In this document: positions 8,707 through 29,616 of the stretch, one piece after another
How the letters are laid out: every line of letters begins with the position of its first letter
How positions within the stretch are numbered: the stretch's first letter is position 1
DNA from: a virus
DNA: 46,159 bases
Reading direction: 5' to 3' (one strand)
IMG/VR virus record: IMGVR_UViG_3300025101_000042
Location: 1-46,159 of that record
The notes under the pieces: generated by a model
Told to the model about the DNA's origin: nothing
What the model saw: the letters and a program-made list of their open reading frames with translations, nothing else
Databases searched by the model: none
Translations under genes and position numbers: made by a program

Positions 8707-8715
8707 GGGAATATT

Positions 8716-10910: not shown

Positions 10911-10951
10911 TTGTATAGAGTTGTTAAAAAATTAAACACAAGGATTAAATA

Positions 10952-12457
10952 ATGGCAAGAGTAGTATTACAACAAGCACCTACAGGTTTAGATACCTTCT
11001 TAGAAGAAATATCAAAGTACGCTAGTCCTGAATATCAGCTAAGAAAAAAAGAATCAGAAAGAGCAGATGCTAGACTAGAGCTATCTAGAAGGCAACAGCA
11101 ACAAGTTGAAGAAAGATATGAAGACTCACTTAGACAGCAAAAGTTTAGCAATGACCTAGCATCAAAGCAAGAAGATAGACTTCAAAAAGCCGCAACTATA
11201 AACGAAGAAAACAACTTAAGAAATAGGGCTGATAAAACTTTTACAAACGCAACATCTGGTTTTGGAGTACAAGAACTTATTGATACTCCAACTGAGGCTT
11301 TTCTTGCGGATATAACAGACCCAAAAGAAAGAATGCTGGTTGAAAGAAGAGTTAATTCTTTAAAGACCAAAGCAGGTGCTCAGCGTACTAGCATAATGAA
11401 GTTTAAAGATGACTACAATAAAAGAAATCCTGACAATGAAATATCAGATAATACAGCTATGGTATTGTTTGGCAACCCTGAAGAACATGCTAGGCACTTA
11501 AGTAGAGTATACCTTGATAGAGATGCTGGAAAAATGAATGATATTCAAAAAGATCAAGTAGATTTTTTTACAAAAGAAATTGGAAGAATGTCAAAGGCTC
11601 TAACAGACTTAGAGACTAAAGAAGCTTCTCTTCCCGGAGTTGATTACAGTACTCAGAAAGAAGAGTTACAACTTGGTTTAGATAATGCATATTCAAAAAT
11701 AGAAAAAATTCTTAACATAAGTAGTCAAGGAGATAGTAGTGTAGATGCTTATGGTGGCAATTCTGTAAATCCTTATTCTAGAGTAGATGCTAAGATAGAA
11801 GAATTTAAGCAAAACCCAGCAGAAGTTTTAGCAAGAACTTTTAACACTCAAAATGTCAATGAAGATGACTATGACATTTTATTTGCAGATGACAATGAGA
11901 TAGGAGAAAATGTCCTAGCTCAAATTCAGGCAAATCAAAACGCAACAGATGATAGCGAAGTTGCTATTGATGGTGATTTTCCAGATGACTCTTCTGCTTA
12001 TAGTCCAGCTATAGTTCCAGAAAATTTATCACAAGAAGATAGAGAAGAACTTGATGTTCCTGCTTTTCTTTCTGGTTTAGGAATGGCTCAAGCTAAAACA
12101 CCTTCTAGAAGTAGAAAATCAAAAGACTTTGATGTTCCAAGAAACCTTAGAGATGCCAGAGCTGGTTCAGAGTTTTTAAAAGATAAAATAAAGAAACTTA
12201 GAAAGGACATAAAAACTTCAGAAACAGCACCAAATCCTCAGACAAGAAAGAATTTTAAAGAAGGATTGCCTAAAAAAATAGAAGAATTAAAAAAATTGTT
12301 TAGCTCTATTTACGACGAATCTACAGACACATTTTATGATGATAATAGTGAAGACATAAGAAGAAAAAGAGAAAGGTTTCCTGTATTAAAAGACAAGCCT
12401 TTGTCTTACAGAGAGCTTTTAGGAGATGACTTAATTAAATTTATCAGCTCTTTATAA
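10952..12457 (+). CDS. internal virion protein, coiled-coil rich
   Basis: 501 residues starting after AAGGATTAAATA. Long charged helices dominate (about residues 20-85 and 200-250), with an acidic Ser/Asp-rich linker around 325-360. No enzymatic motif seen. Position between the motif protein and the 1244-aa protein is that of podoviral ejection proteins. It overlaps the next start (TAATG). Confidence 0.6.
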   Translation: MARVVLQQAPTGLDTFLEEISKYASPEYQLRKKESERADARLELSRRQQQQVEERYEDSLRQQKFSNDLASKQEDRLQKAATINEENNLRNRADKTFTNATSGFGVQELIDTPTEAFLADITDPKERMLVERRVNSLKTKAGAQRTSIMKFKDDYNKRNPDNEISDNTAMVLFGNPEEHARHLSRVYLDRDAGKMNDIQKDQVDFFTKEIGRMSKALTDLETKEASLPGVDYSTQKEELQLGLDNAYSKIEKILNISSQGDSSVDAYGGNSVNPYSRVDAKIEEFKQNPAEVLARTFNTQNVNEDDYDILFADDNEIGENVLAQIQANQNATDDSEVAIDGDFPDDSSAYSPAIVPENLSQEDREELDVPAFLSGLGMAQAKTPSRSRKSKDFDVPRNLRDARAGSEFLKDKIKKLRKDIKTSETAPNPQTRKNFKEGLPKKIEELKKLFSSIYDESTDTFYDDNSEDIRRKRERFPVLKDKPLSYRELLGDDLIKFISSL

Positions 12458-15400
12458 TGGCACAATTCGACCCAAACATGAGCAAAGAACAGCTTGTTAA
12501 TGACTTTAGAGCTGTTGATTCAAAGTATAATTCTATGAGTGATGACTTAGCCTATAAGGTTATTACTAGAAAATTTCCTCAATATAAACTAAGCTCAGAA
12601 ATGCCTGCTTACAACCCTAAGGATGAAAGCGGTATCATAGACACATTAGGAAATATATGGAAAGATGGGTACAATAAGTCCTTGCAGGGAATGGTGTATG
12701 AGATAACTCAAGGTAAGGAGAAGTATGACTTAGGTAACTATCATCCGGGTCTTGTGTCTGACATAGCCGCAGGTGTAGCCTCGTTCTTCCAGCCTCTTGA
12801 TTTTGCTACTACAGTTTTTGGAGGAGGTCTTGGAGGTGCGGCCGCTAAAGTTACGGCTACTAAGTACGTAACTAAAAAATTAATACAGAATGGAGTTAAG
12901 CCTCAAGTTGCTAGTAGAGCGGCTAGAATGGCTGTTAAATCAAATGCTCTAGCAAAAACAGCTACCTCTTCTGCAGGTGGAGCAGGGGCATTAGGCTTGT
13001 ACTCTGGAGCTGGAGAAGCACTAAATGAATATATATCAGATGGCACAGTAACACCCGGCAAGGTAGTAAAAGCTGGAGCTAAAGGTGCAGTTCTAGGTGG
13101 TATGACAGGAGCTACAAATGCTTTTTTAACTCAAAAAGGAGTAGGTGTACTTGGTAGAACATTAGCAGAAACTGGTGAGTTTGCAGTAGTAGCACCTGCA
13201 TTAGAAGGAAGAACTCCTACTACAGAAGATTGGATTCATGCAGGAGGTATGATACTAGGTATTAAGGGTGTAAACAAAGTAGCTACTACAGGTTTTAAAA
13301 AACTTAATGAGTTTAGAAAAGATGCAACAAAGCAAGAGATAACATACGAAACAGCACCTAAAGAATTAAACTTAGATGTAGAAGCAGGAAATGTTGCTAG
13401 GGATAGTTATGCTAGAGAATTATATAACAATATATACACAGATAGAAAAGGCAAAAGAGAAGTAAAGATACAAAGCTTTAATAGAGACAAGGGAGAGTAT
13501 CAATTAAAATTTTTAGATACAAATGAAATATCATTAGTAGATAGAGATGTTTTTTCAACATATTACAGAAGAAAAGAAAATGTTAACATATCTCCAAAAG
13601 AACTAAAAGATAAAAGAAAATCTGAAATAAGAAGTTTAGAAAACGAACTCAACCATTCGACTGAGCAAAAAGAACTTAATAGAGGATTAAATAGAGCATC
13701 TAAAGGAGAGCAGTCAATACCTAAAAGACTTGATGAAAATACTAATTCAGAGATTGTAAACTTAAGAGATAAATTAATAGTTGAAAAATACACTAAGAAA
13801 GCATTAGATGACATGGAAAAGAAAGGTGTGCCTATGCAGAAAGCTAGGTATAGTATATTCCTAGATCAAATGCTACCAGCACCAGCAAATAAATTATTAG
13901 ACATACTTAGACCTGCAAGAAATCAAGGTACTGTAAGTCCTGTTAGGAGGATGTATGTTGCTAAGGTAGATCAGTTTGTAGTAGATCAAAGACGAACTTT
14001 ATCAGAAACCTATGACCTAATGAGCAATTTTGGTTTTAATTCTACAAAGCCAACAAGAGAACAAGCTCAAAGACTTTCTCAAGCTATGGGTGTATCAGAA
14101 GCCAATGCTAAAAGTAAATACTGGGAACTACTATCAGATGCTGTAGAACAAGGAGTAGACATACAAGAAACAAGGTCTTATAGACAAATGTCAGACTTCC
14201 TATTTAATAGAGCCAGAGAATCTGGTGTAGATGTAGGCTATCTTCAAAACTATATACCTAGGATATTAAAGCAAGGTGTTGCTGAAAAAATATTTGCAGA
14301 CATATACAAAATATCTGAATTTGTTTCTAGAGAAACTGCTAGAAGTGGAGAGGATATGTTGGTAAAGAATTTAAAAGACGATTATATAGACTTAATTATA
14401 CAGGCTATGAACAACCCAGAAAGTTTTGCTAAGAATAGAAAGGGTGAGGCTAATTTTTTAAACAGGGTTATTAGAAATGCAGTACCATCTTTATCTAAAG
14501 AAACTAGAGAAGCTTATGATTCTATAATAGAAGGGGTAAAGAGTAGAGACAAGCTTGAAGAGCTTAGTCCATTTAAAGCTATGGCTCTCATGGGTAGGTT
14601 AACATATGGTGAAGTCTTTAAACTAGATGGGAACTTAGAAAAAGCTAGAACATACGAATTGCCTAAAAGTTTTTATGAAAGAGATATTAGAAAGCTTCTT
14701 GGTATATATTCTTCTAATGTAGCTAGGCGTTCAGCAGAAAGAAAAAATTTTGGAAGAGAGGGTAATATATACGAAAATCTTCTTAATAATGCTAGTGCAG
14801 ATGATGTTCCTATTATGAGAGAGCTACATAATCATGTTATGGGTACTATAGGATATAATAGAAGATACAACTTAAACCCGGGTATTAAAGACTTTATGCA
14901 AAAGGTTATGGAGTGGGAAACTTCTACTAAGATTGCATTAGGTACAGCAACAGCTATGAACCTATCTCAGTTTGCAATATCTTCTGCTCTATCTGCAGGG
15001 TATTGGAGGTTTACAAAAGGTACTTATAAGTACATGACGGATAAAAAATTTAGACAACAGGTAGATGCTTCTGGTGGTAACTTATACAAATATATAAATG
15101 AGATGATGGGCATATCCCAGCAAAGTGATATATCTAAAAAAGTAGTAGGTAGATTAACTGATATATCTCAGTTTAATAGAATAAACTCTATTAATAATAT
15201 ATTAGCGGCCGCATCTGCAAGAGTATTAATAGATGACTTAGTAGCTATAACATCTGGAAAAAGAGGCATAGGCCTAGGAAGGATGGGTTCTAAAAAATGG
15301 GCTAAGTCTACTTTAAATAAAATGGGGATAGACCATAACCAAATAAAGAAAGGCAAACTACCAAACTCTACAGTAATAAATGCTATGGGTAGATTTGCTG

Positions 15401-16191
15401 TTAAGACTCAGTTGCAGAAAGATATACTTGCTGACCCTCTTGTTTTAAATAGACCTATACTAAAACCTTTTCTACAGTTTAAATCATTTGGTCTTAGGCA
15501 GTATAACTTCATATCAGATACATTAAAATTTGACTTAGCACATGGGAACTTTATGCCACTACTTAGATTAGCGGCAGGTGGTATGGCTACAGGAGCAGTT
15601 GCTATAAAGGCAAAAGAGTTAATGAAACAACTAGCATCTGGAGAAAAAGCATATGACCCTGCTAGTTTCTTTGAAACAGATGGTCGTGAGATAGTAGAAA
15701 ACGTAGCGGCTATAGGAGCATTTGGTTTCTTAGGAGACTTTCTTATGGCAGGACTAGAAGAAGGTAGAACAGTATCAAATGCATTATTCTTTTTTGCATC
15801 TCCACCTTTTATGTCTGATATAGAAGAACTTGGTAAGTTTATATCTGCACTAGAAAGAGACTATAAAAACTATCAAGGAGACTTTATAAAAAGAGTTCCA
15901 TCTAGAGCTTTAAGAATGACAGGTAGTCCTTTACTTAAGGATGTTGCTAAACAAATAGAAACAAGAGGTATGAAACTAGATAGAATAGAATTTCTAAGAG
16001 GCAGAAGAAAGACTGCTATAATAGATTCTATTATAAATGCAGGTACTCAAGAGGCATACCAAAAAGCCTTAGAAGATATAAAGAATTGGAATAGTTCATA
16101 CCCTATGTTTCCCATCTTGGTAACAGATATAGATTACAAAGCTATAGTAAAAAGAAAGATGCAGAAAGCAAAGAAAAGAAAACAAGTTTAA
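12457..16191 (+). CDS. giant internal virion/ejection protein
   Basis: 1244 residues, the largest product in the window. An N-terminal region with small hydrophobic helices (residues ~105-270, including GGGLGGAAAKVTATK and AGGAGALGLYSGAGEALNEY) is followed by a long helical body. A C-terminal part has further hydrophobic patches (AAIGAFGFLGDFLMAGLEEG, NALFFFASPPFM). No lysozyme or transglycosylase motif seen. The size and place at the end of the structural operon match gp16-like DNA ejection proteins. It converges with the helicase gene, the two stop codons overlapping by 4 bases. Confidence 0.7.
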   Translation: MAQFDPNMSKEQLVNDFRAVDSKYNSMSDDLAYKVITRKFPQYKLSSEMPAYNPKDESGIIDTLGNIWKDGYNKSLQGMVYEITQGKEKYDLGNYHPGLVSDIAAGVASFFQPLDFATTVFGGGLGGAAAKVTATKYVTKKLIQNGVKPQVASRAARMAVKSNALAKTATSSAGGAGALGLYSGAGEALNEYISDGTVTPGKVVKAGAKGAVLGGMTGATNAFLTQKGVGVLGRTLAETGEFAVVAPALEGRTPTTEDWIHAGGMILGIKGVNKVATTGFKKLNEFRKDATKQEITYETAPKELNLDVEAGNVARDSYARELYNNIYTDRKGKREVKIQSFNRDKGEYQLKFLDTNEISLVDRDVFSTYYRRKENVNISPKELKDKRKSEIRSLENELNHSTEQKELNRGLNRASKGEQSIPKRLDENTNSEIVNLRDKLIVEKYTKKALDDMEKKGVPMQKARYSIFLDQMLPAPANKLLDILRPARNQGTVSPVRRMYVAKVDQFVVDQRRTLSETYDLMSNFGFNSTKPTREQAQRLSQAMGVSEANAKSKYWELLSDAVEQGVDIQETRSYRQMSDFLFNRARESGVDVGYLQNYIPRILKQGVAEKIFADIYKISEFVSRETARSGEDMLVKNLKDDYIDLIIQAMNNPESFAKNRKGEANFLNRVIRNAVPSLSKETREAYDSIIEGVKSRDKLEELSPFKAMALMGRLTYGEVFKLDGNLEKARTYELPKSFYERDIRKLLGIYSSNVARRSAERKNFGREGNIYENLLNNASADDVPIMRELHNHVMGTIGYNRRYNLNPGIKDFMQKVMEWETSTKIALGTATAMNLSQFAISSALSAGYWRFTKGTYKYMTDKKFRQQVDASGGNLYKYINEMMGISQQSDISKKVVGRLTDISQFNRINSINNILAAASARVLIDDLVAITSGKRGIGLGRMGSKKWAKSTLNKMGIDHNQIKKGKLPNSTVINAMGRFAVKTQLQKDILADPLVLNRPILKPFLQFKSFGLRQYNFISDTLKFDLAHGNFMPLLRLAAGGMATGAVAIKAKELMKQLASGEKAYDPASFFETDGREIVENVAAIGAFGFLGDFLMAGLEEGRTVSNALFFFASPPFMSDIEELGKFISALERDYKNYQGDFIKRVPSRALRMTGSPLLKDVAKQIETRGMKLDRIEFLRGRRKTAIIDSIINAGTQEAYQKALEDIKNWNSSYPMFPILVTDIDYKAIVKRKMQKAKKRKQV

Positions 16192-19947: not shown

Positions 19948-20152
19948 TAGGTGTACCTCCGTACTCTGTATGTAGTCTACTAGGGTACAGTTCCTCCTCA
20001 TCTGCTGTCATACCTTCTGCCATATTCTTATCTGCTAATCTATCATATTCTTTTACTAGCTTAGTCTTCAAAGTATCTGCTTCTTGTGCATAGTCAGAGT
20101 AACAATCTAGTGCCCTAATGATTGTATCGTATTCGCTGTTAGTTATTTTCAT
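19925..20152 (-). CDS. 75-aa helical protein
   Basis: 75 residues, helical, starting MKITNSEYDTIIRALDCYSDY, immediately after the SSB-like gene. No motif recognised. The 3' 23 bases overlap the next gene. Confidence 0.5.
   Translation of the reverse strand: MKITNSEYDTIIRALDCYSDYAQEADTLKTKLVKEYDRLADKNMAEGMTADEEELYPSRLHTEYGGTPNDNQKVE
19949..19958. promoter_or_regulatory. AGGTGTACCT site, candidate operator
   Basis: One of three related near-palindromes around the HTH gene; the others are AGGTACACCT at 19482-19491 and AGGTACACCC at 19530-19539. This one overlaps the ribosome site of the 71-aa gene, so part of it may be an SD sequence by chance. Confidence 0.3.
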
Positions 20153-20725
20153 TTAGAACGGTAAGTCAGATAGGTCTTGCTTACCATTGCTCCAAGAAAA
20201 TACACCTACAGCCTTTGGTGATGTAACCTCTTCTCCGTCTCTGTTAGTCCAGTTCTCATGCTTTATCTTTATAATAGCTGGCATTCCTTCACAGTTAGAT
20301 GGAGTAAGTACAGGCAATGCATATAGAGTCTTGCCATCTACTTCCTTCTCTTCTGGTTTGATACCTAAAGATTCACACAACTCTTTGAACTCTCTATTAC
20401 CACCAGAGTTAGGTTGCAGTTTATTATCAGATGGACTCTTGAACCTAAAGAAACCTTTAGACCTTATAGTCTTACCTACAAATACACTACCACTATGTTC
20501 ACCAAAGTCTTTATCAGAGTTCTCTTCTGCTAACTTGAACGTTAAGTTGTATATATCTGCAAGGTGCTTACCTCTAATAACAACATCTTCTTTTACTGTA
20601 TAGTCCTTTACGTGAGCATAGAAGTCTCCCTCAGGTACTATTACATTTGGTTTATCTTCAGATGGGTCATAGAAGGACTCTCCTCCCATGACATCACCTA
20701 ATACAGAATCTACAGAATTACTCAT
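20153..20725 (-). CDS. SSB-like ssDNA-binding protein
   Basis: 190 residues. The middle is beta rich (GDFYAHVKDYTVKEDVVIRGKHLADIYNLTFKL) and the chain ends in LSDLPF, the acidic/aromatic tip by which SSB proteins recruit partners. Next to a Rad52/ERF-like annealing gene, which overlaps it by 8 bases, this points to coating of ssDNA in replication and recombination. The exact family (DUF669-like?) is uncertain. Confidence 0.65.
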   Translation of the reverse strand: MSNSVDSVLGDVMGGESFYDPSEDKPNVIVPEGDFYAHVKDYTVKEDVVIRGKHLADIYNLTFKLAEENSDKDFGEHSGSVFVGKTIRSKGFFRFKSPSDNKLQPNSGGNREFKELCESLGIKPEEKEVDGKTLYALPVLTPSNCEGMPAIIKIKHENWTNRDGEEVTSPKAVGVFSWSNGKQDLSDLPF

Positions 20726-21359
20726 TATCTTTTCCTTTTGTTTCCTTTTTTATTAGTTCTATCTTAGCAACTACTTTATCTATATCACCCTTCTCGATGT
20801 TACCATCCTCTATTGAAAGGGATATTTTCTCTTTCCATTCTTCATTAAGTCCTTCCATCTGCTTATATAGAAAGTCTATCTCTTCTTGACTTAGTGAAGT
20901 ATCTTCTACACGATTTCGATATACGTCATCAGCTATGTTTAGATACATATTAAATGCCTTCTTAATACAATCTGTATTAGCTGACTTGATGTCGTTACCT
21001 ACGTCTACAAACTCATCACTGCCTCTCTTCTTCATTATTCTATGAGCCGCTGTCATATCTCCTTCTCTCCATATACCACCTTCAAACCACTTCAATCTAC
21101 CATGTACCATAAAGGCTTCACTACCTAGTGTCTCTGTTCTAACAATAGTCCAAGACCAACCCGGATAGTGCTTGTCTGCCATCTTCTTCATGTACCCTAC
21201 TTCTACGTAATCAACTCCCATCTTGCTCTTTATAAAAGAACGTGGAGTGTCTTCCATAGAAACTTTGTCATGTAGGTTTCTTATTATATCGAAAGCATCA
21301 CTAGTTACAATCTCTCCGTTACTAGGAGTATCATCTACTAATAATATTTCATTACTCAT
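20718..21359 (-). CDS. Rad52/ERF-like single-strand annealing protein
   Basis: 213 residues. The segment VGYMKKMADKHYPGWSWTIV...VHGRLKWFEGGIWREGDMTAAHRI and the later VGNDIKSANTDCIKKAFNMYLNIADDVYR follow the plan of phage Rad52-superfamily annealing proteins (beta core, then a conserved helix). The C-terminus is acidic and coiled. Partner of the SSB-like protein and of the Cas4-like exonuclease at 22299, as in Red/ERF-type recombination. Confidence 0.65.
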   Translation of the reverse strand: MSNEILLVDDTPSNGEIVTSDAFDIIRNLHDKVSMEDTPRSFIKSKMGVDYVEVGYMKKMADKHYPGWSWTIVRTETLGSEAFMVHGRLKWFEGGIWREGDMTAAHRIMKKRGSDEFVDVGNDIKSANTDCIKKAFNMYLNIADDVYRNRVEDTSLSQEEIDFLYKQMEGLNEEWKEKISLSIEDGNIEKGDIDKVVAKIELIKKETKGKDNE

Positions 21360-21681
21360 TTACACCTCTCTTTTTGTATTTATGTAGCATAGCTACCATT
21401 AATAACAGATAGTTAATCATGTCTTGTATCCTTCCTTCTATAGGTTCTGAATATTCCTTGCCGTCTTTAAAGTAATTGTTTATACTAGAGTTATGCTTCT
21501 GATAGTAAACAGATAGAACCTGTAATGGTTCTAGATTTAAACTATTAGCAATATTCTCAAAGTTCCACAATACATTATCATTATGATTACCTTCTGTGTA
21601 CTCTACTCTCTTACTATCTGATAGCTTGAAAGTATCTGCTATGAACTTATCTCTTAGCTTCTTGTATTCCTTAGCCTTCAT
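21352..21681 (-). CDS. 109-aa hypothetical protein
   Basis: 109 residues with GGAGG upstream. Helical, with a hydrophobic C-terminal helix (DMINYLLLMVAMLHKYKK) that could be a weak membrane or packing helix. It overlaps the annealing gene by 8 bases. Confidence 0.55.
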   Translation of the reverse strand: MKAKEYKKLRDKFIADTFKLSDSKRVEYTEGNHNDNVLWNFENIANSLNLEPLQVLSVYYQKHNSSINNYFKDGKEYSEPIEGRIQDMINYLLLMVAMLHKYKKRGVNE

Positions 21682-21865
21682 CCCATTCCTCCTTCAGTCT
21701 AATACCTACACCTTCGCACCAAGTATCTATTATTCTCTCTACCAGCTCCTTAGGGTATCCACCTTCTTCTTTTATTTCCTTTGCTATTTCTAAAAGTATA
21801 GTATCTAGCTTGTCGCATTCGTCTTCAAATACATTGTCAAATATTATGTCATTTGTATTTATCAA
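21671..21865 (-). CDS. 64-aa acidic protein
   Basis: 64 residues from a TTG start that overlaps the previous stop (TTGA), with AAGGAG upstream. Acidic N-half (DNVFEDECDKLDTILLEIAKEIKEEGG). Unknown function. Confidence 0.5.
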   Translation of the reverse strand: MINTNDIIFDNVFEDECDKLDTILLEIAKEIKEEGGYPKELVERIIDTWCEGVGIRLKEEWDEG

Positions 21866-22068
21866 GCGTCTGCTCCTTTCTCATTAACTACTAAGCTAAG
21901 TAAGTCTCTGTCTTTCTTAGACATAGACTCAGCTCTCTTCAAGCTCTCCTTAAACTTAGGTAGTTCTTCTGTTTGATTAGCTACGACAAACATTAAGTTC
22001 ATTAAAGCAAATTCTAAATGCTCTAGTCTAAACTCAATCTTATCTAGCTTTGTCAGTATCTCTTTCAT
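21862..22068 (-). CDS. 68-aa coiled-coil protein
   Basis: 68 residues with GGAGGAG before ATG. Leucine-heptad N-terminus (LTKLDKIEFRLEHLEFALMNLMFVV), likely an oligomer. Unknown function. Confidence 0.5.
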   Translation of the reverse strand: MKEILTKLDKIEFRLEHLEFALMNLMFVVANQTEELPKFKESLKRAESMSKKDRDLLSLVVNEKGADA

Positions 22069-22075
22069 GCTCCTC

Positions 22076-22297
22076 CTAGTAAGGTTTAATAAATACAGAG
22101 TCTACATTTACAACCTCTGTCTTTTTATTTAGTCTTCTATTTAGATTAGATGAGTACACATCTGCTTCTTCTTTAGACTCGAAGAATCTATGTGGATACT
22201 TCTCAGTAATAGAATTGGTAAATGCACCACCTCTAATAATCCACCATGTAATACCATCAATCTCTTCTTTGATAGTCCACTTCTTAGGTAACTTCAC
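22076..22297 (-). CDS. 73-aa hypothetical protein
   Basis: 73 residues from GTG with GGAG upstream, adjacent to the exonuclease gene. Mixed alpha/beta, Trp rich at the N-terminus (KEEIDGITWWIIRGG). Not recognised. Confidence 0.5.
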   Translation of the reverse strand: MKLPKKWTIKEEIDGITWWIIRGGAFTNSITEKYPHRFFESKEEADVYSSNLNRRLNKKTEVVNVDSVFIKPY

Positions 22298-22298
22298 T

Positions 22299-23180
22299 CT
22301 ACTCTCCTTTTGTTTGGTTATATGTACATACTTCTCTTACAGGACAATACGATTCACACTTCATACCACCCCATGTTTCTTCATCTGTACACTTCTCTGG
22401 TAACTCTTTCTTTTCTAATGCAGATAGAAGAGCCTCCCTTTTCATAACATATCTTTCTATTAGATGTTCATTGTCTATGTATGGAACTTCTATCATGTAT
22501 ATCTTACCTGTAATCCCACGCTCTCTAGCTATCTGTAATCCAGCATCTCTAACTGTTGCTTGTATAAACATCTGATCTACTTCGTACCCATTTGTTTCTA
22601 GCAAGTATCTATAGAAATTTAACTGCCATCCCCAATCTTCTAAGTCTGCCTTACTCTCATCTCTGTAGAACTCTTTAACTCTCTTTGGTGTACCTGCCTT
22701 ACCCCATCTACCACTTCTCTTATACACCTCTGTAGGGTGCTTAGTGTAGTAATGTGCTATCCCTAAACACTTTGCTATTTTATACGAACCAGAAAACTTG
22801 TAGTCTACAAGCGTCTTTGTCTCTGAATCATATAAGTCTACTGTACCTGTTATACCATGTGCTTCTAGTGTTATCTCTGACTTCAGTCTATCTAGTAGAC
22901 CTGCTGACTCTTCTAACTTTAGATGATGTAGAGTACCTGCTAGTGCAAATGCATTATCTTCAGGTCGTATACAATACTCAGCAGTTCTTTCTAGATACGA
23001 TTGACAAGTACCATTTAATAACTCAGTAGTAGATGGCTTTCTATCAGAAGGTCTCTGCTGTGACATATGTAGAAGTGTTGGAAGAGATACTCCCAATCTA
23101 GATATATCTGCATGACCTTTCTTGATTTCTGTTATAGGAATGATAGCACCGCTACTATCTACAAACCCTCTCAACGGCAT
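22299..23180 (-). CDS. Cas4/RecB-type PD-(D/E)XK exonuclease with Fe-S cysteines
   Basis: 293 residues from ATG at 23180 (GGGAG upstream); an in-frame ATG at 23228 lies inside the previous gene. Nuclease residues: HH at 85-86, GTVDLYD with Asp115, LVDYKFSG with Asp126 and Lys128, and QLNFYRYL at 186-193. Cys59 plus C275-x3-C279-x5-C285 fit an iron-sulphur cluster as in Cas4/AddB. It should resect DNA ends for the annealing protein. Confidence 0.82.
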   Translation of the reverse strand: MPLRGFVDSSGAIIPITEIKKGHADISRLGVSLPTLLHMSQQRPSDRKPSTTELLNGTCQSYLERTAEYCIRPEDNAFALAGTLHHLKLEESAGLLDRLKSEITLEAHGITGTVDLYDSETKTLVDYKFSGSYKIAKCLGIAHYYTKHPTEVYKRSGRWGKAGTPKRVKEFYRDESKADLEDWGWQLNFYRYLLETNGYEVDQMFIQATVRDAGLQIARERGITGKIYMIEVPYIDNEHLIERYVMKREALLSALEKKELPEKCTDEETWGGMKCESYCPVREVCTYNQTKGE

Positions 23181-23425
23181 GATTTTTCTCCCTTTTCGTG
23201 GCTCGAATTTAGACTTGTATCGTTGCATGATTCAAGAGTTTTATTGCTATCATCATAAATAATTCTTTCCAAGTATATCCCTGTTTCATTTTCAACTGCA
23301 CTCAGTTCTTTTTCTACAATCCCTTCAGCGTTTAAGCCTTTGTGATAGTAGTTATCTTCGTCTACATAGACTGCTAGTTCTACTATTACTGTTTTGTAGT
23401 TGTCGTTATGATTTGTACTACTCAT
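23171..23425 (-). CDS. 84-aa hypothetical protein
   Basis: 84 residues with GGGAGG upstream, acidic, starting MSSTNHNDNYKTVIVELAVYVDEDNYY. It lies between amidoligase A and the exonuclease, overlapping both by 8-10 bases. Not recognised. Confidence 0.5.
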   Translation of the reverse strand: MSSTNHNDNYKTVIVELAVYVDEDNYYHKGLNAEGIVEKELSAVENETGIYLERIIYDDSNKTLESCNDTSLNSSHEKGEKSCR

Positions 23426-24584
23426 TTACTCTTCCTCCCTTGAACTTACTAGTTCTCTTGTTAATATAATCACATAGCTCTACTCCAAAAGTACTCACCA
23501 TGTGAGTAATAGGTGGTTTCTTAATCCACTTATCGTACTCATCTCCTGTGTATCTTTCTAGGTCTATAGCCATATCTATTATGCGATTTAGTATCTGTAT
23601 CCAATTAAGTATCTTGGTTTTGTTTATAGTTCCAGAGTGTAGACGGAACTCTAGAGAGCCATGATAGTATCTAGAATGTATATTAAGACCACAGTATCTA
23701 GCGTCGTTATACTTATCTGTACTAGGGTGAGAATCCATGTAATCATAATACATTTCTATTAACTCGCTCTCCTCTGTAATATTCCTAAGCTGTTTCTTAG
23801 GAATAGGAAAGTCTTTACACCAATTAGAACTCTGTCTAGAGTTAGGCATCATACCTTTTAGTATCTCTTCAAAGTACCTGTATACTATTCCTACATGAGC
23901 TACTTGTCTAGCAGTTAGGTCTAATGAGTTGAAGTGTACATGTAGTCCACAACTTCTATTAACTATTGCACCTATATTATTAGACCATGACATTAGATTA
24001 TCTATACTTCCTAATAGCAGGTCTCCACTAGCAGGGTAGCTTACCATCTCTACAGCTTCATATCCTTCTTCGCTGTTAATAGAACCATCACTTGTACTAG
24101 TCCAAAAGTTAGGTGTATCTAAAGCATCGTTATATGGGAATAGACATTCTACTTCTACCCCTACAAGTCTACGAACAGGAAACTCAAAGGACTCTGCTTT
24201 TCTAGAACAAGCAGGTGGTTCTCTGTCATCTAAATTGTATAACATATCATCTATATCGTTAGGTACACAACTAGAACAGTAGGGATTGTCATTTCTCCAA
24301 TACACCTCATCTCTATCTACAGGCTCTTCACAATCATAACAGTTCTCAAAAGATTCCCAATAGCAATGCTCACAGTAGGGGTCTTGATATGCAAAGTAAA
24401 CCATATCAGTAGGCACACTTTCACTACAACTGTGACATGAGTAGAAGTTGTCATCATGACATGGTTGACAGTATCTGCTCCCATGACTTACTATAATATC
24501 TGCTCTATCTACAGAAATACCACACTCACCACACTCTGTTTGTTCAGGTGTCTCTACCACTTTTTCTCTCTCTTCAACTGGCAT
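23418..24584 (-). CDS. amidoligase A (Amidoligase_2-type, GS fold) with zinc-knuckle array
   Basis: 388 residues. Residues 18-106 hold six CxxC pairs (C18/21, 39/42, 50/53, 71/74, 82/85, 103/106) in LIM/treble-clef style. The catalytic part starts at 140: LVGVEVE (metal/ATP-binding acidic strand), SDGSI at 165-169, CGLHVHFN at 212-219, and RYCGLNIHSRYYHGSLEFRL up to 315, which are hallmark motifs of the COOH-NH2 ligase family related to glutamine synthetase. It should join a carboxyl group to an amine using ATP. Substrate unknown. The domain is paralogous to the one at 25915; they share KYNDARY.G.NIH.R.Y.G..EFR and WIQ.LNRI. Confidence 0.85.
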   Translation of the reverse strand: MPVEEREKVVETPEQTECGECGISVDRADIIVSHGSRYCQPCHDDNFYSCHSCSESVPTDMVYFAYQDPYCEHCYWESFENCYDCEEPVDRDEVYWRNDNPYCSSCVPNDIDDMLYNLDDREPPACSRKAESFEFPVRRLVGVEVECLFPYNDALDTPNFWTSTSDGSINSEEGYEAVEMVSYPASGDLLLGSIDNLMSWSNNIGAIVNRSCGLHVHFNSLDLTARQVAHVGIVYRYFEEILKGMMPNSRQSSNWCKDFPIPKKQLRNITEESELIEMYYDYMDSHPSTDKYNDARYCGLNIHSRYYHGSLEFRLHSGTINKTKILNWIQILNRIIDMAIDLERYTGDEYDKWIKKPPITHMVSTFGVELCDYINKRTSKFKGGRVNE

Positions 24585-24585
24585 A

Positions 24586-24912
24586 CTAGACTCCTATGTT
24601 AGTAGCTTCTATAATACCAACTACAAAAGCGTTTATAACCTTCAACCAATTCATCTTCTTAAGAGTATCGTATATATCTTCTTCTAATGTATCAGAGTCT
24701 CTATCTATCTTTGCATCAATAGAACCCATTACATCTATCTGCTTGAGTAGAAAGTCTAGGTACTCCTCATAAGAGGAACCTACTAGAAAAGGATTCTTCT
24801 TAGCTCTATTATACAAAGTCTCTATCACAAACTTCTTAGACTTTAACTTGATAGGGTTAGGAAATCCTACTAGTATAACCTTCTTCTTAGAATGAGAACC
24901 ACGATCTATCAT
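24586..24912 (-). CDS. 108-aa protein within amidoligase cassette
   Basis: 108 residues with GGGAGG upstream. Lys-rich N-terminal half (KKKVILVGFPNPIKLKSKKFV), an acidic central helix (DRDSDTLEEDIYDTLKKM) and a hydrophobic C-terminal end (VINAFVVGIIEATNIGV). It lies between amidoligase A and the glutamine amidotransferase, overlapping the latter by 26 bases. Not recognised; partner or substrate are both possible. Confidence 0.6.
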   Translation of the reverse strand: MIDRGSHSKKKVILVGFPNPIKLKSKKFVIETLYNRAKKNPFLVGSSYEEYLDFLLKQIDVMGSIDAKIDRDSDTLEEDIYDTLKKMNWLKVINAFVVGIIEATNIGV

Positions 24913-25897
24913 CTTTCACCTCCCTTTTATCTTCATTGCTATAAGAGTCTTTATCTACAAAGTACTCACAGTCAAAGCACACTCTCTTGTTATCTGCATC
25001 TGTCCATAACTCCTCTTGGTCTATCCACTCATAACAATACTCACACATATCCTTTCTACTGTCGCAGGTAGCAGGTAGAGCCATAGTAGCAGGACTTGAA
25101 CCTCTAGTATACTCATCTCTCCAAGACCAACCTCCGTACATAGAAGTCTTGTAGTTGTATTGAGACAAGGTCTCAAACTGCACTTGCTCTCTGTTGGGCT
25201 TACTATTGAAGCTATCTACATCATAGGTATAGATATAGTCCTCTGCTACATTCTTGATTGGTAGAACTAGACCAGCTCTAAGCATAGACTCTCTCATAAT
25301 CTCTTTAGTAGAAGCCCAAAACAATACTCTAGCCTTCTTCCAATAAGCTACTACCATAGGTCTACCAGACTCTCTAGCTAGGTGTACCTTTCTATTACTA
25401 TCCTTTACCCATGTTAGAGCAAAGTCACCTTCTATATTCTCGAAGGCTTCATGCATCTTGTTTCTATTAAGAGACTGAAACAATACCTGCGAGTCTACCT
25501 CGGGTACACCTTTACCCATAGACTTAGCTACTTCATTGTAGTTGTAGATGACACCATTGTGTACACCTACTACATCTCCTACTGTAAACGGATGTGCATT
25601 AGTTACCTTTACCTTACCATGTGTAGCTAGTCTAACGTGACCCATTACAATGGTAGTTTCTCTTGTTATTCGTGATAGAATATTAGCATCAAAGTCATGC
25701 ATATCTACCAAGCTAGATGAATCTACAAGCGTCTTGTAGGTATGTCTACTATCTGAATCAATAATAGAAAAACCTGTACTATCCGTACCACGGATAGAAG
25801 ACTCATCTGTTAGCTCGGTGAACACATCTCTAAGAATCCTCATCTGATTGTTAGATTGTCTACCACTAGTCTTAGCGAATCCAAAGATTCCACACAT
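24887..25897 (-). CDS. class II glutamine amidotransferase with C-terminal zinc ribbon
   Basis: 336 residues. All Ntn-type class II signatures are present: Cys2 nucleophile (MCGIFGF), RGTDSTG at 36-42, GHVRLATHG at 86-94, NAHPF at 100-104, HNGVIYN at 113-119, VDSQVLF and EGDFAL near 134-161. It should hydrolyse glutamine to glutamate and ammonia, or transfer a glutamyl group. There is no fused sugar isomerase or synthetase domain; instead CEYC (285-288) and CFDC (307-310) make a zinc ribbon, as in the two adjacent ligases. It presumably works with them. Confidence 0.88.
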   Translation of the reverse strand: MCGIFGFAKTSGRQSNNQMRILRDVFTELTDESSIRGTDSTGFSIIDSDSRHTYKTLVDSSSLVDMHDFDANILSRITRETTIVMGHVRLATHGKVKVTNAHPFTVGDVVGVHNGVIYNYNEVAKSMGKGVPEVDSQVLFQSLNRNKMHEAFENIEGDFALTWVKDSNRKVHLARESGRPMVVAYWKKARVLFWASTKEIMRESMLRAGLVLPIKNVAEDYIYTYDVDSFNSKPNREQVQFETLSQYNYKTSMYGGWSWRDEYTRGSSPATMALPATCDSRKDMCEYCYEWIDQEELWTDADNKRVCFDCEYFVDKDSYSNEDKREVKDDRSWFSF

Positions 25898-25914
25898 ACT
25901 ATTTTCTCCTTTTG

Positions 25915-27735
25915 TTAGTTGTTATCTATTCTCCTGTCTATATACTCAGCACCGAATACACCTGTTATATCTTTAAGTATATCCATAGTTGGTATTTTGT
26001 CAGAAATAATTCTGCTACAAAGCACAGGGTCTCTTTGTAATTTTGTAGCCGTTGTCATAATTCTATTGAGAAATTGTATCCACTCTTGAATAGGTCTAGA
26101 GTATATACTACCCTCATGGTATCTAAATTCTATTGTGCCTAAGTAGAACCTAGCGTGTATATTAGTACCAAAGTACCTAGCATCATTGTACTTATTATCA
26201 GTAAGGTTAGTATTAGCACCTTTGTAGTATTCGTTTACTAGATGACTTAGGCTTCTCATTCTAGATATTTTTCTAGGACTCATAGGTATTTCTTTACAAT
26301 ATGTATTATCTGTTCTATTACTAGGTAACCCTCTATAGATATAACCTTGCAACCTAGACATAATCATTAGTAAAGATTGTATCTCTGTAAAGTTAAAGTC
26401 TAGTGCGTTCATATGTATATGTATACCACAGCTCTCATCTGTATAGTTATCATCTTCTCTATGTGTCTGCTCTAGACTATCTAGTGCTTCTACTACTGTA
26501 TCACCTATAATAGGCTTATGAGTTACAAACTCTACACCTCCAGAACTTAGAGAGCCATCTTCTATTACCTCAAAGTAGTCAGGCTCACCTACTGCACTTA
26601 CATAGTCCTCAGAGTCATCGTAGCAAGTTATAACCTCACTTTCTATACCTATGTATCTATTGTACTCACTCTTAGTTGCTAGTTTCATAGGTAGCCTTCT
26701 GTATCTAAAAGGACTAGCTAGATAAGACTGCAACTTTAGATCGGCACAAGAGGTGCAATATCTACGACCTAAAACATTATGATAACCTTCATGATTTCTA
26801 GCAAAGTCCATTAATAGCATTCTTCTATCAGCAGAACTTTCTGCATGTCTAAGCTTGTCAAAGTCTATTACATCAGAACATCTACAATGTTCACAAGATA
26901 TAATTAGGCTCTCCCAACAAGGCTTACAACACCTAGTAATATCTAAGTCTAGGTATGTACTTTTAGTGTTTTTATCTTGTACGCTAAGTATACCTACTAA
27001 GTCAGTTAACTTGTAATCCGTATGACAAGCATCACATTTTTCTACTGTAGTATTGTAACAAGTGTTGCAGTACTTATCTTCATTGTGTACATATGTATCA
27101 GTTACTATGTCGCTACACTTAGTACAAGCATGGTAGAGTCTGTTGCTTCTAGTATTCTTTCTAATAGCTACAGCTAATATTTGTTGCCATTCACCTTGTA
27201 GATAGAATCTATTAACAGTAGGTTCACTTACATAAGTATTATCTACAAATGTCAAATCTTGTATCTTTTTATGTAAAGGTCTAACCTCACTAGTAATTCT
27301 ATATTCAGCAGTAGACAAAAGATATTCCATCATGTCTAGACTATCTTCATATCTACTATGTAGTATATTGCTATAATAGACTGACTTATAGTTTATTTCA
27401 TCTTCTACGTTATACTCAAATGTTAGATTGTACAATCGCCTATCTGAATATAATAGATCGGTAGCTCTACATAATATTCTATTACTACCTTTTTTAGTTT
27501 CTATTAGAACACCTAGTACATACTTAGAGTTAGGATTGTCCCAATCTTCTATCTTAGCTACGTCTAGTATCTTAGCTACTCTAGATGCTATAGTCTTAAA
27601 ATGGTAAGACTGTAGAGTTCTGTCATTAGCATAGACATCGTAGTCGTAGAGAACATCTATCTCTTTGAAACTACTAGCACTAGTATACCTAGCATTAGTT
27701 GTATCTAGTAGATAGACGTCATTTGAATATAACAT
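25915..27735 (-). CDS. amidoligase B (Amidoligase_2-type) with long N-terminus and zinc knuckles
   Basis: 606 residues with AAGGAGG upstream. The first ~200 residues are a separate beta-rich domain not present in ligase A. Then CxxC pairs (C204/207, 223/226, 234/237, 270/273, 281/284, 327/330) form zinc knuckles. The ligase core has YIGIESE at 361-367, IEDGSL at 391-396, GGVEFVT at 399-405, CGIHIHMN at 436-443 and FGTNIHARFYLGTIEFRYH at 522-540. Same predicted ATP-dependent carboxyl-amine ligation as A but a distinct paralogue, so the two may act at successive steps or on different acceptors. Confidence 0.85.
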   Translation of the reverse strand: MLYSNDVYLLDTTNARYTSASSFKEIDVLYDYDVYANDRTLQSYHFKTIASRVAKILDVAKIEDWDNPNSKYVLGVLIETKKGSNRILCRATDLLYSDRRLYNLTFEYNVEDEINYKSVYYSNILHSRYEDSLDMMEYLLSTAEYRITSEVRPLHKKIQDLTFVDNTYVSEPTVNRFYLQGEWQQILAVAIRKNTRSNRLYHACTKCSDIVTDTYVHNEDKYCNTCYNTTVEKCDACHTDYKLTDLVGILSVQDKNTKSTYLDLDITRCCKPCWESLIISCEHCRCSDVIDFDKLRHAESSADRRMLLMDFARNHEGYHNVLGRRYCTSCADLKLQSYLASPFRYRRLPMKLATKSEYNRYIGIESEVITCYDDSEDYVSAVGEPDYFEVIEDGSLSSGGVEFVTHKPIIGDTVVEALDSLEQTHREDDNYTDESCGIHIHMNALDFNFTEIQSLLMIMSRLQGYIYRGLPSNRTDNTYCKEIPMSPRKISRMRSLSHLVNEYYKGANTNLTDNKYNDARYFGTNIHARFYLGTIEFRYHEGSIYSRPIQEWIQFLNRIMTTATKLQRDPVLCSRIISDKIPTMDILKDITGVFGAEYIDRRIDNN

Positions 27736-27865
27736 CTCTTACCTCCTTGAGTATTGCTACTATATAATCTCTGTACATAATAACAACACCACTAGAAAGA
27801 ATAGTCAGTAGACTGACATGACTCTCTCCACAGGAACCAAGTAGATGGTGTAGTATCTCTCTCAT
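27719..27865 (-). CDS. 48-aa small hydrophobic protein
   Basis: A short ORF with AAGGAG 5 bases upstream, overlapping the start of amidoligase B by 17 bases. The product has one hydrophobic stretch (HVSLLTILSSGVVIMYRDYIVAIL, given here in part) and may be a membrane peptide. A second ATG two bases upstream in another frame gives only 25 codons. Confidence 0.45.
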   Translation of the reverse strand: MREILHHLLGSCGESHVSLLTILSSGVVIMYRDYIVAILKEVRDVIFK

Positions 27866-27884
27866 ACATTCTCCTTGTTAGTTA

Positions 27885-28307
27885 TTAGATAGGCCAATAA
27901 TACTCCATGTCTATTGGCTCTTCCCATTTGTACCTAGAGTAGTAATACTCTAAGTCTTTACGTAGTAGATTGCTTCTATGAGAAGCGTGTACTCTATCAT
28001 CGCCCAACCAAGTGGGCATCTCTATAGAATTTGGTAGACCTACAAGTTCCATCGTATTGTTGTAACCTCTAAGTATCCACTCTTCTATCATCTTGTTCTT
28101 GTAGAGTAGCAACGCTTCTACATAACCATCCCACATTAGAACGGCAGGATGTCTTCTCCAACCCTTGTACTTCTTACCTTGTAGAGTTGGATTATCTACT
28201 AATACATTGTATATTTGCAATGCTTCTACTCTCTGCTTACCTAGTCTACGATAATCTAGCATACTAGCAGAGATAGAGAAATCTTCGTGTGGTAGAAATG
28301 TTTGCAT
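27885..28307 (-). CDS. DNA-glycosylase-like protein (pyrimidine-dimer glycosylase/MSMEG_6728-type)
   Basis: 140 residues. MQTFLPHEDF....MLDYRRLGKQRVEALQI and the following GWRRHPAVLMWDGYVEALLLY are the signature of a family annotated as T4 endonuclease V-related pyrimidine-dimer glycosylase-like. It could repair or process modified bases in phage DNA. Just upstream in the operon from the amidoligase cassette. Family assignment is from memory of the N-terminal motif; catalytic activity is untested. Confidence 0.7.
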   Translation of the reverse strand: MQTFLPHEDFSISASMLDYRRLGKQRVEALQIYNVLVDNPTLQGKKYKGWRRHPAVLMWDGYVEALLLYKNKMIEEWILRGYNNTMELVGLPNSIEMPTWLGDDRVHASHRSNLLRKDLEYYYSRYKWEEPIDMEYYWPI

Positions 28308-28430
28308 CTACAACCATATCCTTAGTAGTTGTAACAATATGTAGATAGGTGCTAATATAGCTAGAACCTCTCCTACATCTTCTATTCTTTCTACTATCTC
28401 TTCCATTATCTTGTCGAATCTATCTACCAT
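28308..28430 (-). CDS. 40-aa amphipathic/TM protein
   Basis: A short ORF exactly abutting the glycosylase-like gene, with AGGAG 6 bases upstream. The product has an acidic helical N-half (DKIMEEIVERIEDVGEV) and a hydrophobic end (LAILAPIYILLQLLRIWL). The 5' end overlaps the upstream gene by 7 bases. Confidence 0.55.
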   Translation of the reverse strand: MVDRFDKIMEEIVERIEDVGEVLAILAPIYILLQLLRIWL

Positions 28431-28882
28431 GTCTTCTCCTCTCTTAGTATTGGTCTAACAATTCTAGGGTCTAGAAGTCTACCTTTTCTCTTATGGTAGG
28501 TATTGTCTACTACCATTCTTCTACGAGTACTAGCCATTCTCTTAGCTTGGCGTTCTAGTGCCTCTGCTACTTCTTTTCTCTTGAGTGTAGTAGCTAGGGT
28601 AATTCTCTTGTAACTAGTTCTAGCATACTCATCATGTACATTGACTACCTTGTTCTCTTGAAACGCTTTCTGTCTGAACATTTCTATAAGCTCCCAAGTC
28701 TGTAACATAGACTTAGACATATTAGTTAGTACAATGGGATTATCTAGTGATGAGTCATCTATATGAAGAGAATATCTACTACTGTTTTTAGAGATACGAA
28801 TATCTACTGTGCCACTACTACTATATCTATATAGATCGAGTGGAGTAGGTGATTCCATATCTACTATTATATCATCTATCAT
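28424..28882 (-). CDS. 152-aa hypothetical early protein
   Basis: 152 residues. The first half is beta-like (GTVDIRISKNSSRYSLHIDD). The second half is strongly basic and helical (KRKEVAEALERQAKRMASTRRRM), suggesting nucleic-acid binding. Preceded by a 134-bp intergenic region with three CGTTCTA repeats. Confidence 0.55.
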   Translation of the reverse strand: MIDDIIVDMESPTPLDLYRYSSSGTVDIRISKNSSRYSLHIDDSSLDNPIVLTNMSKSMLQTWELIEMFRQKAFQENKVVNVHDEYARTSYKRITLATTLKRKEVAEALERQAKRMASTRRRMVVDNTYHKRKGRLLDPRIVRPILREEKTW

Positions 28883-28982
28883 AATTGCCTCTACGACTTT
28901 TGTTATCTATAAAATTCGCATCTACTATTTTTGCTTCTACTAGATACGAAGTCTAGAGATAAGTTTAAGCAGAAGGGCCTAG

Positions 28983-29019
28983 CGTTCTACTAAGCCCGTT
29001 CTACTATTTAGCCGTTCTA
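28983..29019. repeat. three CGTTCTA direct repeats
   Basis: CGTTCTA occurs at 28983, 28997 and 29013 (starts 14 and 16 bases apart), in the 28883-29016 intergenic space and just entering the 3' end of the 90-aa gene. The rest of this space contains no ORF; it also has a partial inverted repeat centred on CTAG near 28940. Confidence 0.45.
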
Positions 29020-29289
29020 TTTAGAGCAATTAAGAGAGACTTTAGTTATCTCTTGTCCTGTTGGTAGGTTACTGTTCCATTCTACAAGGTTCCTATCTAT
29101 TACTTCCTGCCCTTGCTCCCACCAGTCCTTAACCTCTTGGGGTGCATGGTCTAGTTTGCCGATTCTACTAGAAGCTGAAACAATGCCATTTGCAATGGCT
29201 GTATTAGTCATCTTATCTACTGTCTCTTTATCTAGTCCAGATGCTTCTAGACCTTTCCTAAAAGCTATGTTGTTTATTTTCTTACTCAT
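29017..29289 (-). CDS. 90-aa early protein
   Basis: 90 residues, MSKKINNIAFRKGLEASGLDKETVDKMTN..., helical, one of the promoter-proximal genes of the leftward arm. The ribosome site is weak (AAGGAT about 13 bases upstream). Downstream of a candidate promoter at 29319-29348. No family recognised. Confidence 0.55.
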   Translation of the reverse strand: MSKKINNIAFRKGLEASGLDKETVDKMTNTAIANGIVSASSRIGKLDHAPQEVKDWWEQGQEVIDRNLVEWNSNLPTGQEITKVSLNCSK

Positions 29290-29318
29290 TGTTATCTATT
29301 ATCCTTTTATCTACTAAA

Positions 29319-29348
29319 AATATAGTAGATTTGTTTGTTTGATTTAAA
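29319..29348 (-). promoter_or_regulatory. sigma70-like leftward promoter
   Basis: On the minus strand TTTAAA, 18 bases, TATATT, upstream of the 90-aa gene. The same -10 box and spacer length occur in three other candidate promoters here. Confidence 0.5.
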
Positions 29349-29390
29349 ACGTATTTTCATGGCCTTAATGTACAGCAGTCAGCCAAAAAA

Positions 29391-29407
29391 ACAAATATTG
29401 TATTTGT
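29391..29407. promoter_or_regulatory. 17-bp palindrome ACAAATA-TTG-TATTTGT
   Basis: Perfect 7-bp inverted repeat with a 3-base centre, 43 bases upstream of the leftward promoter's -35 box; operator-like. Confidence 0.45.
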
Positions 29408-29484
29408 AGTTTATTATTCGTAACTTCAGGACTTTTTGCCTATTAGATAAGAATGAGACTCAATCTCAATAAGAATAAGTGGTG

Positions 29485-29616
29485 ACGTATAGGTAAGGTA
29501 GCTGACGTAAACGTAAGGTAAGTAACGTAATAGTAAGTTGTATTACCTTAACGTAAAGAATCTAACTAAAAAGTCAGTTTTCTAACGTAAACGGAATTTT
29601 ACTTTCGCTAACGTAA
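29485..29616. repeat. ACGTAA repeat cluster
   Basis: Exact ACGTAA at 29505, 29511, 29525, 29551, 29585 and 29611, with ACGTAT at 29485 and ACGGAA at 29591. Several are extended to TAACGTAA. All face the same way on the plus strand. Iteron-like. Confidence 0.65.

What the first reader, a model, noticed from the sequence alone, without database searches (positions are those of the whole stretch)
23418..27735. Phage cassette of two zinc-knuckle amidoligases flanking a class II glutamine amidotransferase
Seen: two paralogous ligases with GVEVE/GIESE, CGxHxHxN and GxxEFRxHxGxI motifs, on either side of a complete Ntn glutamine amidotransferase, all in one early operon. Known: PF12224-type amidoligases form amide bonds with ATP, and class II amidotransferases supply ammonia or glutamyl groups. 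Inference: the phage makes an amide-linked adduct on a protein, nucleotide/DNA or cell-wall molecule, with two ligases for two steps or two acceptors. The amidotransferase has no acceptor domain of its own, so the ligases are the likely partners.
Basis: partly seen in the sequence, partly recalled or inferred. Interest (0 to 1): 0.88.

Follow-up and report, generated by a model that had tools for sequence, protein, structure and literature searches.

The report
Zinc-armed viral amide-bond ligase cassette
An uncultured phage lineage carries a tight set of genes (a glutamine-splitting enzyme, one or two amide-bond-forming enzymes bearing zinc-finger-like modules, and usually a small unknown protein) that looks like a new version of a known but unexplained phage tool for adding amide groups to something in its host.

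Summary
Two PF12224 amidoligases with conserved catalytic residues (AL2 25915-27735, AL1 23418-24584) flank a class II glutamine amidotransferase (GAT, 24887-25897) on the minus strand. AL1 models as a glutamine-synthetase/YbdK-type fold behind three LIM-like Cys4 units. Of 71 dereplicated GAT loci, 54 have x: 38 AL-GAT-x-AL, 15 GAT-x-AL, 1 cut by a contig end. One further lineage member, L160, has GAT and a zinc-type ligase but no x. Dereplicated x genes directly follow a GAT in 48 of 48 cases and precede an AL in 44 of 44 with room. x was not found in phage records or, by pattern scan, GTDB genomes. The cassette is inherited with the replication genes, so loci are not independent. Phage amidoligase/GAT cassettes are already known; the ligase zinc arrays, x and twin ligases make this a new variant. 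Most likely a glutamine-dependent amidation or ligation complex; acceptor unknown.

The parts
25915..27735 (-). AL2, long amidoligase, 606 aa: N-terminal part without a family match (aa 1-200), six CxxC pairs (aa 204-330), PF12224 domain (about aa 358-570)
26746..27126 (-). CxxC region of AL2 (aa 204-330), spacing less regular than in AL1
   Evidence: seven Cys of this region invariant in the 32 aligned sequences
24887..25897 (-). Class II (Ntn) glutamine amidotransferase, 336 aa; glutaminase domain about aa 1-225, no synthetase domain
24968..25045 (-). Single Cys4 unit at the C terminus of the GAT (C285, C288, C307, C310)
   Evidence: The four Cys are invariant in the 30 aligned sequences; units of this kind resemble the AL1 units weakly but beyond their Cys
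24586..24912 (-). x, 108-aa orphan protein; its start overlaps the GAT end by 26 bases, its stop lies one base before the AL1 start codon; conserved C-terminal tail at 24589-24621
23418..24584 (-). AL1, short amidoligase, 388 aa: three Cys4 LIM-like units then a GS-fold PF12224 domain
24267..24533 (-). LIM-like Cys4 array of AL1 (aa 18-106), three CxxC-x17-CxxC units
   Evidence: Pfam LIM 29.8 bits, cut-off 22.9; LIM chains top the PDB profile search

Best explanation
The genes make one glutamine-dependent amide-forming complex. Shown: a GAT with the conserved class II glutaminase residues, two PF12224 ligases with conserved catalytic residues (AL1 with a modelled GS fold), CxxC/Cys4 modules on all three enzymes, and x as a near-constant neighbour. 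Inferred: the GAT splits glutamine and hands ammonia to a ligase; the ligase activates a carboxylate with ATP and makes the amide; the Cys4 modules and x hold the enzymes together or hold the acceptor. GAT with AL1 is the core, x is its usual partner, and AL2 is a second ligase that part of the lineage has, to widen the acceptor range or add a step. The acceptor is most likely a host molecule. My first guess is a cytoplasmic cell-wall precursor (analogy with MurT/GatD and with the superinfection idea in print for phiEco32); second guess a protein.
For: AL1 residues D166, S168, E179, H215, H217, R250, N301, E312, R314 are kept in 53 of 53 AL1-type and 38 or 39 of 39 AL2-type domains and in 11 or 12 of 12 reference domains (L056 and L163 left out of the groups; 2 of 14 reference domains were too short to enter). 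GS/YbdK fold of AL1. GAT Cys2 and the RxAT and HNG motifs invariant, no synthetase domain. x behind a GAT 48 of 48, before an AL 44 of 44 with room. Overlapping or touching frames, with a Shine-Dalgarno-like GGAG for AL1 inside the last x codons. GAT Cys4 units resemble AL1 units beyond the Cys: 42% of 85 units at p<0.05 against shuffles, 5% expected, median z 1.4; the units are related sequences and absolute scores are low. Precedent for a separate GAT with a zinc-ribbon ligase: MurT/GatD (PMC6113224, passages).
Against: No biochemistry, no known acceptor, complex not modelled. Constant order is inherited in one virus lineage, so loci are not independent. L160 belongs to the lineage (it shares DnaB, the nuclease and other genes) yet has no x and no CxxC in its GAT, so neither is indispensable. 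Cellular relatives of the ligase rarely have a GAT nearby (1 of 69), and 3 of 14 reference-phage loci have a ligase but no GAT in the stretch fetched. 6 of 39 AL2-type proteins show no regular Cys4 unit (some are cut by contig ends). 5 of 11 reference GATs also carry two or more CxxC, so a Cys-rich GAT tail is not special to this lineage. The sequence profile of AL1 matched only zinc-module chains in the PDB, no GS-fold chain, up to E 1; the fold rests on the model.
Confidence: 0.58

Rival explanations
1. The ligases join an amino acid or other amine rather than ammonia, and the GAT is a separate glutaminase that frees glutamate or ammonia for host metabolism (auxiliary metabolic genes, as proposed for phage ZRK32).
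For: YbdK and glutamate-cysteine ligase, among the nearest folds, use amino-acid amines (enzymology recalled). ZRK32 authors propose nitrogen and amino-acid metabolism (PMC10945688, passages). PF12224 ligases of cells and of 3 of 14 reference loci stand without a nearby GAT.
Against: GAT, x and ligase are adjacent in all x-bearing cassettes with room, and their Cys4 units are alike.
Confidence: 0.2
2. The cassette makes a modified nucleotide or DNA base; the zinc modules bind nucleic acid.
For: It sits in the same run as replication genes; several reference cassettes also lie before primase or helicase genes.
Against: Pfam on 30 window proteins listed no thymidylate synthase or hydroxymethylase family, base-modifying kinase or glycosyltransferase. 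Not all window ORFs were scanned: at least six small ORFs of that gene run and many late genes were left out.
Confidence: 0.08
3. x is itself the acceptor or carrier: a small phage protein whose C-terminal carboxylate or conserved lysine is joined or amidated by the ligases.
For: The x tail (aa 98-108) is predicted disordered (pLDDT below 50) yet conserved (mean entropy 1.44 bits against 2.86 for aa 1-9 and 1.21 for aa 10-45); 49 of 54 end in N/H/Q, at most one residue, G/A, I/V, at most one residue. No D or E column is universal (best 49 of 54), so the C terminus is the only universal carboxylate; K26 (51 of 54) and K85 (53 of 54) are near-invariant.
Against: L160, in the same lineage, keeps GAT and a ligase without x. 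In the window's clade the last codons also carry the AL1 ribosome site, which explains part of the tail conservation, though not in clades whose site lies after the stop. A scaffold role fits equally well. The last residue varies (V, A, S, T, G).
Confidence: 0.12

Closest known systems
Phage amidoligase/GAT cassettes, e.g. LUZ24, Suseptimavirus EK010, Alcaligenes phage QDWS535, Zobellviridae, Arthrobacter phages (family analysis: Iyer et al. 2009, recalled; not held)
   Same: PF12224 ligase next to or near a class II GAT, in several cases close to replication genes
   Different: None of 14 reference ligases has two or more CxxC, and x was not found there (best weak score E 0.027 in the 8 loci). 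Many references add an annotated COOH-NH2 ligase and an ATP-grasp protein; these were not detected here. Their absence is not unique: the Arthrobacter stretches have ligase plus GAT without an annotated ATP-grasp protein.
YbdK / GCS2 carboxylate-amine ligases and glutamine synthetase
   Same: Fold of the AL1 catalytic domain (Z 10-12)
   Different: About 10% identity; Cys4 array, GAT and x partners
MurT/GatD peptidoglycan amidation pair
   Same: Separate glutaminase plus ATP ligase with a zinc ribbon, whose role is unclear (PMC6113224 passages)
   Different: GatD is a class I GAT (recalled) and MurT a Mur ligase; different folds
GlmS, AsnB and PurF glutaminase domains
   Same: Class II glutaminase domain
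   Different: No synthase domain; curated cut-offs not met

Membership tests
PF12224 Amidoligase_2 | Passes the curated score | tested here: met
   84.3 and 89.2 bits, cut-off 22
PF12224 Amidoligase_2 | GS-like fold | tested here: met
   AL1 only: Z 12.2 to YbdK and homologue, rmsd 4.0-4.3 over 222-225 residues. AL2 was not modelled.
PF12224 Amidoligase_2 | Conserved catalytic residues | tested here: met
   that these are catalytic is inferred from conservation and from GS enzymology as recalled
PF12224 Amidoligase_2 | ATP-dependent amide formation | not testable with these tools
   Needs biochemistry
Class II glutamine amidotransferase | N-terminal nucleophile Cys after Met and conserved RxAT, HNG motifs | tested here: met
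   Invariant in 30 aligned sequences; GATase_6 68.7 bits, cut-off 27
GlmS / AsnB / PurF | Curated full-length model score | tested here: not met
   Best 69.3 bits against 381
Known phage amidoligase/GAT cassette | PF12224 ligase beside a class II GAT | tested here: met
Known phage amidoligase/GAT cassette, LUZ24 layout | COOH-NH2 (PF14395) ligase and ATP-grasp partners | tested here: not met
   Not detected among 30 window proteins scanned with Pfam or the further proteins scanned with PHROGs. The record may be incomplete.
Known phage amidoligase/GAT cassette, LUZ24 layout | GGCT partner | tested here: inconclusive
   Not detected, but several ORFs of that size or smaller were not scanned
LIM domain | Passes Pfam LIM score | tested here: met
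   AL1 only, 29.8 bits, cut-off 22.9; AL2 and GAT show no LIM match
Anti-phage defence system | PADLOC model match | tested here: not met
   No match at E 0.1 for the four proteins

The most novel reading that the evidence does not exclude
x is a phage-coded substrate or carrier protein: the GAT/ligase set amidates its C terminus or conjugates it, through its tail or a conserved lysine, to a host target, in the manner (not the ancestry) of Pup and its GS-fold ligase (recalled), with the zinc arrays recruiting enzyme and target. That would be a viral protein-conjugation or peptide-amidation system.
Probability: 0.1. Interest if true: 0.85.

Novelty: new variant of a known kind. Interest (0 to 1): 0.52.

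Why it matters
Phage amidoligase/GAT genes have been annotated since at least 2012 (PMC3517423, passage), and none of the papers whose passages I saw names a demonstrated acceptor. This lineage offers a compact form, with GAT, x and one ligase constant in 53 of the 54 x-bearing loci (the 54th is cut by a contig end), and without detected ATP-grasp or COOH-NH2 ligase partners. That makes reconstitution and acceptor hunting practical, and x gives the acceptor question a concrete candidate.

Tried and rejected
x against Pfam, PHROGs, NCBIfam and PADLOC: nothing for the window copy. 6 of 24 relatives touch DUF5312 (best E 9.7e-5); not pursued. x fold against PDB: 0 matches at E 0.001. Against BFVD: two unnamed small proteins, probability 1.00, TM 0.55-0.58, E 0.04-0.09, left as leads. 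x profile against PDB sequences: nothing better than E 0.19.

Search for x fused to the ligase in L160 or L163: none. Cassette moving as a unit: not supported; distances of GAT, AL2 and AL1 correlate with DnaB (0.89-0.91) as strongly as with each other (0.84-0.87), those of x somewhat less with everything (0.74-0.80). Defence system: no PADLOC match. Tail conservation of x as purely a ribosome-site effect: only part of the story.

Iyer 2009 and the Marvin paper are not held. For 'not in print': the searches listed no paper that by its title or abstract start describes zinc-armed phage amidoligases; x has no name to search by. The library is partial. Two papers gave only a reference-list hit (PMC7824862; PMC6256558), one a figure legend (PMC6209634), one an unrelated table (PMC5705681).

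Full report
What is there. On the minus strand the window codes, in order, AL2 (606 aa), GAT (336 aa), x (108 aa) and AL1 (388 aa). x starts 26 bases inside the end of GAT, and AL1 starts one base after the x stop codon, with GGAG inside the last x codons. The window is one IMG/VR virus record of 46,159 bases. Terminase large subunit, portal, major head protein and DnaB helicase match PHROGs. No exact direct terminal repeat of 15-200 bases was found, and no DNA polymerase was recognised among the proteins scanned.

The enzymes. Both ligases score about four times the PF12224 cut-off in bits, and the GAT passes GATase_6. AL1 modelled from 32 aligned sequences has mean pLDDT 90 and pTM 0.73. VIA-align gives Z 12.2 to YbdK and its Salmonella homologue, 11.6 to plant glutamate-cysteine ligase, and 10.1-11.3 to the glutamine synthetases listed, within model residues 107-388. 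Foldseek gives 9 matches at E 1.7e-4 to 8e-4, all of this superfamily, with low global TM scores. By sequence alone the AL1 profile finds only zinc-module chains in the PDB. AL2 was not modelled; its fold is inferred from the family. Catalytic residues are kept in both ligase types and in the reference phages (for E144 and E146, 7 of 12 reference domains have gaps there, as their matched domains are cut short). The GAT profile finds GlmS, PurF and AsnB chains, but the protein has no synthetase domain.

The zinc modules. AL1 has three CxxC-x17-CxxC units and AL2 six CxxC pairs with less regular spacing. Among the 54 x-bearing cassettes every GAT has at least one unit (24 have one, 5 two, 18 three, 7 four); of 39 AL2-type proteins 6 show no regular unit. 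None of 14 reference-phage ligases has two or more CxxC, nor has any of 69 bacterial genome relatives. The 14 references were picked by me from the hit lists, not drawn at random, and the 69 came from two short peptide patterns. 5 of 11 reference GATs do have two or more CxxC, so a Cys-rich GAT tail is wider than this lineage while the ligase arrays were seen only here and in L163, a viral locus on a different background. Zinc binding itself is inferred.

x. The window copy has no Pfam, PHROG, NCBIfam or PADLOC match, none in 50,697 phage records by tblastn at E 1, and no confirmed relative in GTDB genome contigs by the tool's pattern scan (386 pattern hits, none confirmed). In IMG/VR, 198 x ORFs dereplicate to 48; 48 of 48 follow a GAT, and 44 of the 44 with downstream room precede an AL. 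The model (pLDDT 74) is a small alpha/beta domain with a low-confidence tail. Invariant in the 54 aligned are G16, N40, P41, F42, L84 and W89; K26 and K85 are near-invariant; no D or E column is universal; the tail is conserved.

Distribution. 216 GAT ORFs in 225 loci dereplicate to 71: 38 AL-GAT-x-AL, 15 GAT-x-AL, 1 AL-GAT-x at a contig end, 4 AL-GAT, 1 GAT-AL (L160), 12 GAT alone. Of the 54 loci with at least 2.5 kb on both sides the counts are 31, 11, 0, 3, 1 and 8. One search shows that of the 17 loci without x only L160 shares the lineage's replication and packaging genes (DnaB, nuclease and others); L077 and L078 share only a Pyr_excise homologue. So x is present in 54 of 55 lineage loci. 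The 71 come from searches with this GAT, AL2, AL1 and x, of which the tool kept the best 80 candidates, so the fractions describe this neighbourhood and not all phages. In the 15 single-ligase loci no second PF12224 ORF appears upstream of the GAT, within 5.5 kb in 14 and 1.7 kb in one. Two of these loci, L072 and L075, lie on one 80-kb contig. In the ligase tree short and long copies form separate clusters (supports 0.91-0.93), and single ligases fall on the short side; some inner supports are low. Flanking genes such as the PD-(D/E)XK nuclease accompany most cassettes (35 of 38 and 12 of 15; lower bounds, since flanks differ in length), and pairwise distances of cassette genes follow DnaB. 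So the cassette is an inherited part of one uncultured lineage, kept while mean pairwise identity fell to 30% for AL2 and 41% for AL1. Cultured phages gave no megablast match to 20000-29500 and no nuclease match; the terminase matches 292 records, all below 60% identity, 25-29% in the rows shown.

What is known. Phage amidoligases with GATs are in print: UFV-P2 (PMC3890496, passages), tf (PMC3517423, passage), OM43 phages (PMC10580990, passages), ZRK32 (PMC10945688, passages). The OM43 paper says that cell-wall modification preventing superinfection was suggested for phiEco32 (citing Iyer 2009), and secondary metabolites for Marvin; I could read neither source. Four annotated references share GAT, COOH-NH2 ligase, a hypothetical protein of 189-208 aa, PF12224 ligase and an ATP-grasp-type protein, two of them with GGCT; phiM6 has GAT, ligase and ATP-grasp without an annotated COOH-NH2 ligase. 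Arthrobacter phages have ligase plus GAT without annotated ATP-grasp, and Porphyromonas, Bacillus and Geobacillus phages a ligase without GAT in the stretch fetched.

How it likely works. GAT frees ammonia from glutamine, a ligase activates a carboxylate with ATP and forms the amide, and the zinc modules and x keep the parties together. The first two steps follow from the families; coupling, complex and acceptor are inference. MurT/GatD shows that a glutaminase and a zinc-ribbon ligase can be one complex, although the paper calls the role of its zinc ribbon unclear (PMC6113224, passages).

Verdict. Real, well conserved, biochemically coherent, and a new variant of a known kind. The boldest reading, x as acceptor, is testable and not excluded, though L160 shows a relative that does without x.

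Noticed in passing
L013 and L029 (contig IMGVR_UViG_3300030101_002855); L072 and L075 (IMGVR_UViG_3300030708_000851): Two different cassettes lie on each of these contigs of 64 and 80 kb; either joined assemblies of two viruses or real double carriage.
   Followed up: no
27885-28307: Pyrimidine-dimer DNA glycosylase (PF03013, E 1.4e-22) directly upstream of the cassette; relatives in 17 of 38 and 11 of 15 cassette loci, and in L077 and L078 outside the lineage.
   Followed up: partly
107-1699 and 42431-44842: Two proteins near the two ends of the record match the same tail-spike/virion PHROGs (4636, 6002, 23837), so the record may carry two spike-like proteins.
   Followed up: no
5123-16191: Five large plus-strand proteins (970, 223, 371, 501, 1244 aa) had no PHROG match at E 0.001 and no Pfam match at E 0.01.
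   Followed up: partly
27136-27735: The first 200 aa of AL2 match no Pfam or PHROG family; shorter AL2-position relatives of 457-458 aa (L040-L042) exist.
   Followed up: no
L163:7986-10272: A ligase with nine CxxC directly before a GAT with two, placed apart from the lineage in the ligase tree, without x and without the lineage's other genes.
   Followed up: partly
L160:6974-9683: A lineage member with GAT lacking CxxC, no x, and a 574-aa ligase with six CxxC and a C-terminal extension; a natural variant for asking what x and the GAT zinc unit are for.
   Followed up: partly
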